From Clostridia bacterium (GTDB taxonomy: Bacteria; Bacillota; Clostridia; Oscillospirales; Acutalibacteraceae): a stretch of DNA of 64,000 bases. Positions within the stretch are counted from its first letter, which is position 1. Each line of letters starts with the position of its first letter. The position numbers and the translations under genes are program-made. Positions 1 to 3,001 of this stretch are shown piece by piece. The DNA lies in contig JAFPUM010000010.1 of assembly GCA_017395425.1 (NCBI GenBank), positions 1-64,000 on the forward strand. Direction: 5' to 3'. The notes below the pieces were generated by a model that saw only the letters and a program-made list of their open reading frames with translations, ran no database searches and was not told the DNA's origin.

Positions 1-35
1 CCTCCGAAATCCCCGGAAATCGGAGGTGATGCCCG

Positions 36-131
36 ATGGTGACATACGCAGAGCTGTTCACATTTGTGATGATGATCTGTGCGATCATTAACTTGGTCGT
101 GGTACTCATCGACAGAAACAAAAAGAAATAA
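36..131 (+). CDS. Small hydrophobic peptide, probable type I (holin-like) toxin
   Basis: This is a 31-residue peptide with an ATG start and an excellent SD (GGAGGTGAT, 5-nt spacing). It begins MVTYAELFTF, has one likely membrane helix at about residues 7-26 and ends RNKKK. That layout matches the Firmicutes putative holin-like/TxpA-type toxins, which disturb the membrane when over-expressed. CCTCCGA at 1-7 can pair with TCGGAGG at 20-26 and hide the SD, as in many type I toxin mRNAs. The stop codon lies in the left arm of the terminator at 121-168, and an antisense promoter faces it from 226-254. The family call rests on sequence pattern; toxicity is inferred. Confidence 0.72.
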   Translation: MVTYAELFTFVMMICAIINLVVVLIDRNKKK

Positions 132-168
132 CCGCCTAGCCTGGTAAACTTAGCGGTTATTTCTTTTT
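121..168. terminator. Bidirectional terminator shared by toxin mRNA and antisense RNA
   Basis: AAAAGAAATAACCGC (121-135) pairs perfectly with GCGGTTATTTCTTTT (153-167) around a 17-nt loop. An A-run on one side and a T-run on the other give an intrinsic terminator in both directions. Confidence 0.85.
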
Positions 169-219
169 GATAAACCCTTAGTTTGTCGGAGCGTCGTCTA
201 TTGAGAACACTCTGTCTGT
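125..219 (-). ncRNA. Predicted antisense antitoxin RNA
   Basis: The minus-strand promoter at 226-254 should start a transcript near 219 that runs toward the small hydrophobic peptide gene. It would end at the palindromic hairpin at 121-168, giving an RNA of about 95 nt complementary to the 3' end of the peptide mRNA. This is the architecture of RatA/txpA-type antitoxin RNAs. The ends are estimated from the promoter and hairpin only. Confidence 0.5.
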
Positions 220-225
220 ATGTTT

Positions 226-254
226 ATTATAGCACGGTTGCGGGCGTTTGTCAA
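226..254 (-). promoter_or_regulatory. Sigma-A promoter for the antisense RNA
   Basis: Read on the minus strand: TTGACA (249-254), 17-nt spacer, TATAAT (226-231), both consensus hexamers. It lies just past the degV-family stop codon, so it is not the promoter of that gene. The only unit ahead of it is the small toxin-like ORF. Confidence 0.75.
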
Positions 255-272
255 CGGGCGGGGGCAGGAAAA

Positions 273-1303: not shown

Positions 1304-1690
1304 ATGAAAACCGGACAGGAAGCCGTCAGGAAACAATGGAAACAAGCCGCCGCGCTCAATCTTTCGGCGCTGGCTGCCGCACTGGTCTATATGGCGATCA
1401 TGGTGAGGACGGAGATTTTCTGCCCGATACGGCACCTGACAGGCATTCCCTGTGCGGGGTGCGGTATGTCGCGGGCGCTGGGCTGCCTGCTGCGGGGGAA
1501 TTTCGCGGGTTCGCTGCGGTGCAATCCCGCGCTGCTGCCTTGCCTCATGGCGGCGTTCGTGCTGCTTAACCGGGAAACGGTGGTTCTGGCGCGATGGGAC
1601 AGGCGGGTGAAGGACGCGGTGATCGCCGCGGGATTCGGTTTTACGCTGGGGGTCTATGTGGTAAGACTGCTGTTTTTTGAAATTCCTTAA
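1304..1690 (+). CDS. DUF2752 membrane protein
   Basis: This is a 128-residue protein with three hydrophobic segments (about 17-34, 73-88 and 105-125). The DUF2752 signature CPIRHLTGIPCAGCGMSRA occurs near residue 40, with its paired cysteines. The function of the family is unknown; it is an integral membrane protein common in Firmicutes and Bacteroidetes, often beside TM2 proteins. A TM2-domain gene follows 25 bp downstream on the same strand, so the two are likely co-transcribed. SD GGGAGGG precedes the ATG. Confidence 0.85.
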   Translation: MKTGQEAVRKQWKQAAALNLSALAAALVYMAIMVRTEIFCPIRHLTGIPCAGCGMSRALGCLLRGNFAGSLRCNPALLPCLMAAFVLLNRETVVLARWDRRVKDAVIAAGFGFTLGVYVVRLLFFEIP

Positions 1691-2286: not shown

Positions 2287-2689
2287 GCGCGCTGTAAAGA
2301 CGCGGCGCGCCGAAAATAGCAGCGACTGCACATGAGATATGCGATGAAGCGGGAGGTTGCGTCCCTTGTGAAAGACAGGCGGACGGTTTTTCCGTGGAGT
2401 ATGTCCGATTTGAAACCGGGCGAAAAAGTGTGCGCGATGGATTTCCTGACGTCGGAGCGTCCCAATGTGTTCCGATGAGGGGGATACTGCGCGTCAAACG
2501 CTTACTGTGAGTTTTTCACTGACTTCATTGACCCGGAAAGCCGTTGATATCCCCCGGACAGAGACGGCTTCCCGGATTTTTCATGCCCGACGATGAAACA
2601 CCCGGACGGGTTGTTGAAAAGGATTCAAAGGATGCAGCGGAAACTCATGGAAGCGGTTCGCCGCAAATACTTACAGGAGGCGATTTTTT
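2287..2689 (+). promoter_or_regulatory. Untranslated leader of the S10 operon
   Basis: About 400 nt lie between the promoter and rpsJ. The leader contains the attenuator-like hairpin at 2533-2581 and a 48-codon frame (2332-2478) without an SD. It ends with the rpsJ ribosome-binding site (AGGAGG). The length and the hairpin suggest ribosomal-protein autoregulation, such as by L4 in other bacteria, but I cannot match it to a known leader class by eye. Confidence 0.5.
2533..2581 (+). terminator. Possible transcription attenuator in the S10 leader
   Basis: CCGGAAAGCCGT (2533-2544) pairs with ACGGCTTCCCGG (2564-2575) with one mismatch, and ATTTTT follows directly. This intrinsic-terminator shape lies about 110 nt before rpsJ, inside the leader, so it can only act as a conditional terminator. 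Confidence 0.55.
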
Positions 2690-3001
2690 ATGGCAGTCAA
2701 GGAAAAAATCAGAATCAGAATCAAGAGTTACGATCACTCTCTCGCGGATCAGGCGGCACAGAAGATTGTGGACGCTGCCAAGCGTGAGGGCGCACAGGTG
2801 TCCGGTCCGGTTCCGCTCCCGACCGACAAGCAGATCGTGACGATTCTGCGTGCGGTTCACAAGTACAAGGACAGCCGTGAGCAGTTTGAGTACAGAACCC
2901 ACAAGCGTCTCATCGATATCCTGAGACCTTCCAACAAGGTTGTGGAGGCTCTGAAAGGATTAGAGCTCCCTGCGGGCGTTGAGATCGAAATCAAGCTGTA
3001 A
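2690..3001 (+). CDS. rpsJ: Ribosomal protein S10
   Basis: 103 residues, the usual S10 length. It belongs to the 30S head and, as NusE, to the transcription antitermination complex. The family signature is visible: [10 protein letters not shown] at the start, the RTHKRLIDI stretch near residue 70 and the [11 protein letters not shown] end. It is the first gene of the translation operon. ATG start with AGGAGG 9 nt upstream. Confidence 0.98.

What the first reader, a model, noticed from the sequence alone, without database searches (positions are those of the whole stretch)
1..260. Compact type I toxin-antitoxin locus
A 31-codon hydrophobic peptide gene has its SD inside a potential hairpin (CCTCCGA/TCGGAGG). 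Its stop lies in a perfect bidirectional terminator, and a consensus promoter (TTGACA-17-TATAAT) on the other strand fires straight into its 3' end. Every expected part of a TxpA/RatA-like module is present in 260 bp.
Basis: partly seen in the sequence, partly recalled or inferred. Interest (0 to 1): 0.7.

Follow-up and report, generated by a model that had tools for sequence, protein, structure and literature searches.

The report
Toxin-antitoxin module with twin RNA leaders
A tiny membrane-peptide gene sits opposite a short antisense RNA gene, as in known toxin-antitoxin pairs, and in many relatives the antisense RNA begins with a copy of the peptide messenger's own leader, a feature that my paper searches did not turn up.

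Summary
In detail: ORF 36-131 (31 aa), an SD hairpin at 1-26, a perfect 17-bp inverted repeat with T-tracts on both strands, and a 12/12 TTGACA-17-TATAAT promoter on the minus strand. The window starts at a contig end. The toxin promoter and a leader of about 150 nt lie on contig C7, which ends with 116 identical bases, so the module is about 0.4 kb, not 260 bp, and is the second of a tandem pair.

The peptide looks protein-coding (pN/pS 0.16, four ORFs) and is a weak, below-cut-off match to Hol_Tox/PepG1 type I toxins. The antisense promoter was found in 26 of 26 copies; several decayed copies keep only the antisense side.

New here: toxin mRNA and antisense RNA start with the same locus-specific sequence. 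The antisense 5' 10-mer matches its own mRNA leader at 1.93 mismatches against 3.95 for other loci (54 modules, p 5e-5); this recurs within genomes and in a second set. The copied segment is the one predicted to pair with the toxin SD in cis.

Verdict: a type I toxin-antitoxin module, a new variant of a known kind. Why the leaders match is unproven.

The parts
1..26 (+). local SD hairpin (CCTCCGA / TCGGAGG) at the end of the toxin mRNA leader; the leader itself begins off-window on contig C7
   Evidence: -10.9 kcal/mol alone; not in the best fold of the whole leader
20..28 (+). Shine-Dalgarno stretch TCGGAGGTG; TCGGAG is complementary to CTCCGA of the off-window leader and of the antisense RNA (191-186)
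36..131 (+). 31-aa hydrophobic peptide ORF (putative membrane toxin) with a KKK tail
   Evidence: Hol_Tox 18.7 bits (cut-off 23.3); pN/pS 0.16
119..169 (.). bidirectional intrinsic terminator: 17-bp perfect arms 119-135 and 153-169; the stop codon and KKK codons lie in the 5' arm
   Evidence: predicted fold
117..220 (-). predicted antisense RNA (antitoxin), about 100 nt, 5' end near 219-220
   Evidence: promoter; RNA model R1 match 117-221, 94.8 bits, (the window copy is one of the 24 training rows of R1)
189..212 (-). antisense 5' hairpin; same-sense copy of the start of the toxin mRNA leader
   Evidence: fold (-9.3 kcal/mol, z -1.4: not remarkable by energy alone); alignment fold; matched-arm test; twin tests
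186..193 (-). antisense CGCTCCGA segment, complementary to the toxin SD and identical to the leader segment predicted to pair with the SD in cis
226..254 (-). antisense promoter TTGACA-17-TATAAT

Best explanation
The locus is a chromosomal type I toxin-antitoxin module. The toxin mRNA starts off-window, carries a structured leader that hides the SD, encodes a 31-aa membrane peptide and ends in a terminator shared with the opposite strand. A strong opposing promoter makes an antisense RNA of about 100 nt. It pairs first through the shared terminator (about 50 nt of perfect complementarity), which would invite RNase III. In addition it carries a copy of the mRNA's own leader segment whose CGCTCCGA can pair with the toxin SD, so the antitoxin may do in trans what the leader does in cis. 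Shown by computation: an ORF with the mark of protein selection, predicted SD sequestration, the terminator, antisense promoter conservation, leader twinning. Inferred: transcription, toxicity, antitoxin activity, RNase III and the SD contact in trans.
For: Anatomy. pN/pS 0.16 over 5 informative pairs of 4 window-like ORFs, two of which are identical over the compared part, last 3 codons left out. Hol_Tox matched at E up to 1 by 13 of 16 family peptides, PepG1 by 6 of 16. Antisense promoter by a loose pattern in 26 of 26 copies, and in 24 of 24 evaluable rows with ORF and SD (where rows had to show promoter or antisense core to be listed). Antitoxin-only relics. Copy A: SD core paired with probability 0.99-1; mRNA and antisense RNA gain -42.8 kcal/mol on co-folding, at the terminator. 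Window copy: SD paired in cis with the leader segment that is copied into the antisense RNA. Antisense 5' arms: locus-matched -10.9 against -8.35 kcal/mol, p 5e-5. Twin leaders. Leader 3' arm with own SD in cis: -15.0 against -13.1, p 0.0003, 34 of 54 modules; antisense 3' arm with own SD in trans: -11.9 against -11.2, p 0.005, 54 modules; an earlier cut of the same test: -14.0 against -13.2, p 0.009, 56 modules.
Against: No transcript or toxicity data. The SD tests are not significant within genomes (cis p 0.25, trans p 0.10). Leader 5' arm with antisense 3' arm is p 0.009 and antisense 5' arm with leader 3' arm p 0.002 over all modules, but p 0.52 and 0.15 in the genus set, 0.013 and 0.09 outside it, and 0.95 and 0.25 within genomes. 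The mRNA leader's own two arms do not covary (p 0.89). Unrestricted duplex energies did not single out the own partner. The predicted co-fold uses only the terminator. Hol_Tox and PepG1 scores of the window peptide are below the curated cut-offs. Two other peptide types have higher pN/pS, 0.47 and 0.71.
Confidence: 0.7

Rival explanations
1. An ordinary Hol_Tox/SprG/TxpA-like module: the antisense RNA works only through the 3' overlap and RNase III. The twin leaders are a relic of an inverted promoter duplication kept similar by gene conversion between the two inverted copies.
For: Same-sense identity is strong while trans pairing tests fail within genomes. Promoter spacers are also slightly more alike within a locus than between loci (54 modules 2.56 against 2.81 mismatches, p 0.006; the 40 modules outside the genus set 2.33 against 2.66, p 0.003). 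The co-fold uses only the terminator.
Against: The match is concentrated in the transcribed 5' arms (1.93 against 3.95), absent from promoter spacers in the genus set (14 modules, p 0.89) and not significant in the antisense middle region (p 0.086). The second arm is copied too (2.85 against 4.01, p 5e-5).
Confidence: 0.35
2. A small membrane protein that is not a toxin; the opposing RNA is a regulator or transcriptional noise.
For: Toxicity is untested and family scores are below cut-off.
Against: Antisense promoter near consensus in nearly every copy seen (L045 is weaker), toxin-side decay with the antisense side kept, very different short hydrophobic peptides in the same RNA frame.
Confidence: 0.1
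3. A MITE-like mobile repeat: inverted terminal repeats (promoter plus leader) flanking a short insert.
For: Multi-copy, inverted similar ends, tandem arrays.
Against: Several copies share genomic neighbours across the genus (a degV-like and an aminotransferase-like gene, the latter named from recall; read in the sequences), the ORF shows protein selection, inter-locus divergence is high. No target-site duplication was sought.
Confidence: 0.04

Closest known systems
par of pAD1 (RNA I / RNA II, Fst)
   Same: Convergent promoters, bidirectional terminator, SD-hiding stem-loop, structure at the mRNA 5' end, a second contact at the SD through repeats (PMC7472228, passages).
   Different: No Fst family hit and no PXXXG by eye; the SD-complementary repeat is part of a longer leader segment copied into the antisense RNA; antisense RNA about 100 nt (inferred) against about 40.
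TxpA/RatA and BsrG/SR4 (Bacillus subtilis)
   Same: Convergent 3' overlap, short hydrophobic toxin (PMC3531473 and PMC4147584, passages); Rfam BsrG matches in two relatives at E 0.22 and 0.43, below gathering.
   Different: 31 aa against 59 for TxpA; overlap about 50 nt against about 120; the review sees no RatA complementarity to the txpA start region, here there is some.
Hol_Tox (PF16935) / PepG1 (SprG1/SprF1)
   Same: Hydrophobic core and KKK tail, stop codon inside the terminator; terminator DNA 84-88% alike in three Enterococcus plasmids (two annotated pepG1, one holin-like toxin) and one Levilactobacillus plasmid.
   Different: Score below cut-offs. Leader twinning is clear in many modules of the window's order; in Levilactobacillus it is traceable by eye, in two Enterococcus loci only a short core (GACGGTG) is shared.

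Membership tests
type I toxin-antitoxin (general) | short hydrophobic toxin ORF under selection | tested here: met
   (few, non-independent pairs)
type I toxin-antitoxin (general) | antisense promoter opposing the toxin, conserved in relatives | tested here: met
type I toxin-antitoxin (general) | toxin toxic, antisense RNA represses it | not testable with these tools
   needs expression
Hol_Tox PF16935 | score above the gathering cut-off | tested here: not met
   18.7 against 23.3 bits; 13 of 16 relatives match at E up to 1
PepG1 NF041589 | score above cut-off 70 | tested here: not met
   19.2 bits
TxpA/RatA | toxin and antisense RNA overlap at their 3' ends | tested here: met
   shared terminator, (in sequence; transcripts not seen)
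TxpA/RatA | sequence relation to TxpA | not tested
   only Hol_Tox-level similarity seen; TxpA itself was not aligned
TxpA/RatA | antisense RNA has no complementarity to the translation start region (PMC4147584) | tested here: not met
   CTCCGA 191-186 against TCGGAG 20-25; matched-locus test p 0.005, not significant within genomes
par/Fst | convergent promoters and bidirectional terminator | tested here: met
   toxin promoter off-window
par/Fst | repeats that make the antisense RNA complementary to the SD | tested here: inconclusive
   present in sequence; matched-locus test p 0.005 over all, 0.10 within genomes
par/Fst | Fst-type peptide | tested here: not met
   no Fst family hit; no PXXXG by eye

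The most novel reading that the evidence does not exclude
In a large lineage of Clostridia, many of them from the rumen, the antitoxin RNA of these modules is a trans-acting copy of the toxin mRNA's own inhibitory leader. The copied leader differs from locus to locus and serves as an address, so that many paralogous modules in one genome stay insulated from each other.
Probability: 0.35. Interest if true: 0.75.

Novelty: new variant of a known kind. Interest (0 to 1): 0.6.

Why it matters
The order holds many such modules (R1 matches in 59 of 295 genomes; one single-contig genome with five in tandem). Two paper searches listed, by title and start of abstract, no type I system of these bacteria. 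If the leader copy sets specificity, cross-talk between paralogous antisense systems becomes directly testable by swapping leaders. Antitoxin-only relics give a natural test of what selects for antitoxin retention.

Tried and rejected
Arm-exchange pairing as the cause of twinning (mRNA 5' arm with antisense 3' arm): supported over all modules (p 0.009), not within genomes (p 0.95); not adopted as the main claim. Gapless pairing tests failed, including the antisense hairpin meant as positive control, so they say nothing about pairing. Unrestricted duplex energies did not single out the own partner (median rank 23 of 58). A long-range contact of the leader core AGGCGGUU with the terminator arm looked possible by eye but showed no locus matching (p 0.96, same gapless method). 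Loop-loop kissing was set aside by eye because several loops are pyrimidine-only. Known RNA family: the only Rfam match at gathering in the whole window is an S10 leader outside the module; weaker matches are below cut-off. Phage or plasmid origin: an exact 20-mer of the terminator was found in 0 viral contigs; plasmid hits cover 16-19% of the query. Weak R1 matches at G000:C58 and C8 (E 0.0014, 0.0047) gave no module.

Rows dropped and limits: one search used 26 of 27 loci (L029 left out as another toxin type); one of the 26, L051, comes from an Oscillospiraceae record and may lie outside the genus. One search left out L051, and 24 of its 25 antisense rows went into A1 (L043_1946 left out). 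Searches used 58, 56 and 54 of the 68 modules (core or arm not found in the rest); one search uses the same 54, one search uses 38 in 12 genomes; cis test 34 of 54; second set 18 of 24 parsed (one too short, five repeats of the same antisense start). demands an antisense promoter and a promoter or antisense core, so neither can show copies that lost both. Some cores were mis-picked by the scripts (for example L035, L072, L075; L041_401; L251); they were kept in the counts. 5e-5 is the floor of 20,000 permutations.

Full report
What is there. The window begins at base 1 of contig C1 of its genome G000. Bases 36-131 encode a 31-aa hydrophobic peptide with a KKK tail. An SD hairpin can form at 1-26, a perfect 17-bp inverted repeat (119-135, 153-169) holds the stop codon and is followed by T-runs on both strands, and the minus strand bears a 12/12 TTGACA-17-TATAAT promoter at 254-226. 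The downstream neighbour on the minus strand, 273-1151, is a DegV protein (158.7 bits).

What the window does not show. Contig C7 ends with 116 bases identical to window 1-116. The close relative G017 carries, on one contig (L042, C92), the gene that lies on the C7 side and the degV that lies on the C1 side, matched by eye, so C7 most likely lies upstream; this is inference, and the contigs were not joined. C7 supplies the toxin promoter (TTGACA at C7:6813, 17 bp, TACAAT) and a leader of about 153 nt up to the ATG at C7:7001, and just before it a complete sister module, copy A (C7:6529-6783 matches the window stretch at 79%). From -35 to -35 the module spans about 0.4 kb. Further copies in G000: C36:50677 (no similar promoter or leader) and C57:181302. 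A second toxin type (peptides MGELYIFAIILVLIMLIHNDSKKD and MEGLYIFAIILVLIMIIHNDSKKD) sits at C7:3508 and C56. Its twin leader scores 28.0 at C56; at C7:3508 it is visible by eye, while the script picked a wrong promoter there and scored 18.5.

Is the peptide real? Among window-like ORFs of equal length (4 ORFs, two of them identical over the compared part) 5 informative pairs give pS 0.41, pN 0.065, ratio 0.16, last three codons excluded because they lie in the terminator stem; other types give 0.15 (10 pairs), 0.47 (45 pairs) and 0.71 (4 pairs). The pairs are not independent.

Family. The peptide scores 18.7 bits with Pfam Hol_Tox (cut-off 23.3) and 19.2 with NCBIfam PepG1 (cut-off 70); 13 of 16 relatives match Hol_Tox and 6 of 16 PepG1 at E up to 1. 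It is like those toxins but not filed as a member.

Conservation of the antisense side. One search collected 27 copies by terminator, ORF and SD without asking for a promoter; in the 26 used, a loose promoter pattern found one in 26 of 26 (for L041_401 the printed pick is wrong and a good promoter lies further in; L045 is weak). In one search, which lists rows only if they show the promoter or the antisense core, 46 rows were found, 38 evaluable on both sides; 34 have the antisense promoter, 23 the leader, 24 ORF and SD, and by my reading of the list all 24 have the promoter (one of them, L050, is a spurious read-through ORF, one, L029, is the second toxin type). Three of the four without promoter are opposite-strand readings of the same terminators (L037, L038, L073), the fourth is L089. 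I inspected 13 rows: in L039 (second), L042, L050, L052 (second), L053, L054 (first), L073 and L199 the toxin start or body is gone while antisense promoter, 5' element and terminator remain; L038 has the ORF but neither leader nor SD; L002 and L045 have toxin and SD hairpin but no similar leader; L076 lacks the element; L029 is the second toxin type. Decay, as far as these searches can show it, spares the antisense side.

Twin leaders. Printing leaders and antisense RNAs side by side showed the same-sense 5' sequence in both; in the window copy mRNA ACGGACAGGGTGTTCTC...GGCGGCGCTCCGA and antisense ACAGACAGAGTGTTCTCAATAGACGACGCTCCGA. Among 58 modules the local alignment score of leader with own antisense RNA is 28.2 against 17.2 with others, and the own partner has median rank 1 (0 is best). 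Among 54 modules the antisense 5' 10-mer is found in its own leader with 1.93 mismatches against 3.95; 39 of 54 have 2 or fewer, against 8.4% of mismatched pairs; permutation p 5e-5 (the floor). The second arm gives 2.85 against 4.01 (p 5e-5), promoter spacers 2.56 against 2.81 (p 0.006; genus set p 0.89; others p 0.003), the antisense middle 3.35 against 3.49 (p 0.086). Shuffling only within genomes (38 modules, 12 genomes) keeps the effect: 1.87 against 2.44, p 5e-5. A second set from the order and phylum searches (18 of 24 modules) repeats it: 27.6 against 17.7, p 5e-5, median rank 0. Of six loci over the Hol_Tox cut-off in the order (L236-L241), three show the twin match (L238 score 28.0, L240 34.5, L241 35.0), L236 does not (18.5), and L237 and L239 could not be judged; a second module in L240 scores 18.5. 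In Levilactobacillus a match is visible by eye; in two Enterococcus loci only the short core GACGGTG is shared.

What it may do. The antisense 5' arms fit each other by locus (-10.9 against -8.35 kcal/mol, p 5e-5) and alignment A1 folds there, 3 of 15 predicted pairs having a two-sided change; the hairpin's energy alone is unremarkable (z -1.4). The mRNA leader's two arms do not covary (p 0.89). In the window copy the SD is predicted to pair with CGCTCCGA of its own leader (C7:6899-6906, up to 0.99), the very segment that recurs in the antisense RNA at 193-186. Over modules the leader's 3' arm fits its own SD in cis (p 0.0003) and the antisense 3' arm fits the same SD in trans (p 0.005), neither significantly within genomes (p 0.25 and 0.10). 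Trans pairing of the arms (leader 5' with antisense 3'; antisense 5' with leader 3') is p 0.009 and 0.002 over all modules, 0.52 and 0.15 in the genus set, and 0.95 and 0.25 within genomes. The best-supported reading is that the antitoxin carries a copy of the cis-inhibitory leader; that it binds the SD is inference. Copy A's predicted mRNA has its SD core paired in the local hairpin at 0.99-1, and co-folding with its antisense RNA gains -42.8 kcal/mol at the terminator alone.

Spread. RNA model R1, built from 24 antisense RNAs, matches 14 of 18 genus genomes (E up to 0.01), 73 of 300 family genomes, 59 of 295 order genomes and 22 of 398 phylum genomes, of which 18 lie outside the order, the last three at E up to 0.001. 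R1's E-values are rough, self-matches of the palindromic terminator occur on the wrong strand, and not every match was inspected: 80 regions were fetched, and the scripts parsed 68 and 24 modules. In G415 five matches lie in tandem about 335 bp apart, parsed as five modules. Named records with the exact terminator 20-mer are titled uncultured Clostridia, Clostridiales, Ruminococcus sp., Oscillospiraceae or Bacillota, one from goat omasum and some with RUG isolate names (15 stretches). That the window's host is of this kind is inferred, since its own record is unnamed.

Comparison with print. par of pAD1 has convergent promoters, shared terminator, SD stem-loop, upstream helix and direct repeats that bring the antisense RNA to the SD; repeat divergence is offered there as the reason for lack of cross-talk (PMC7472228, passages). 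TxpA/RatA overlaps by about 120 nt and is degraded by RNase III (PMC3531473, passages; PMC4147584, passages). A review says a homologue search found type I toxins in few Clostridia, and describes the convergent modules of C. difficile (PMC6563280, passages). The paper searches listed no paper on twin leaders, judged by titles and starts of abstracts; beyond the passages of those four papers I read nothing, so this is absence from those listings only. The present module works most like par while its peptide is most like Hol_Tox.

Noticed in passing
window 2336-2426 (+): S10-Clostridia ribosomal protein leader (Rfam RF03136, 49.3 bits) upstream of the ORF 2690-3001, which fits ribosomal protein S10 by position.
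   Followed up: no
G000:C7:3508 and G000:C56 (L029, L248, L251): A second type of the same module in the window's genome, with a 24-aa peptide ending KKD and its own twin leader (by eye at C7, score 28.0 at C56).
   Followed up: partly
L039 (second), L042, L050, L052 (second), L053, L054 (first), L073, L199: Antitoxin-only relics: toxin start or body lost, antisense promoter and RNA kept; some stand beside a complete copy.
   Followed up: partly
L215 (G415:C1:290600-292900): Five modules in tandem at about 335 bp spacing with near-identical peptides.
   Followed up: partly
L109:2031-2278 (+): T-box-like leader, 75.6 bits, below Rfam gathering, near a module in G245.
   Followed up: no
window 1304-1690 (+): DUF2752 protein (56.2 bits), next gene after degV.
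   Followed up: no
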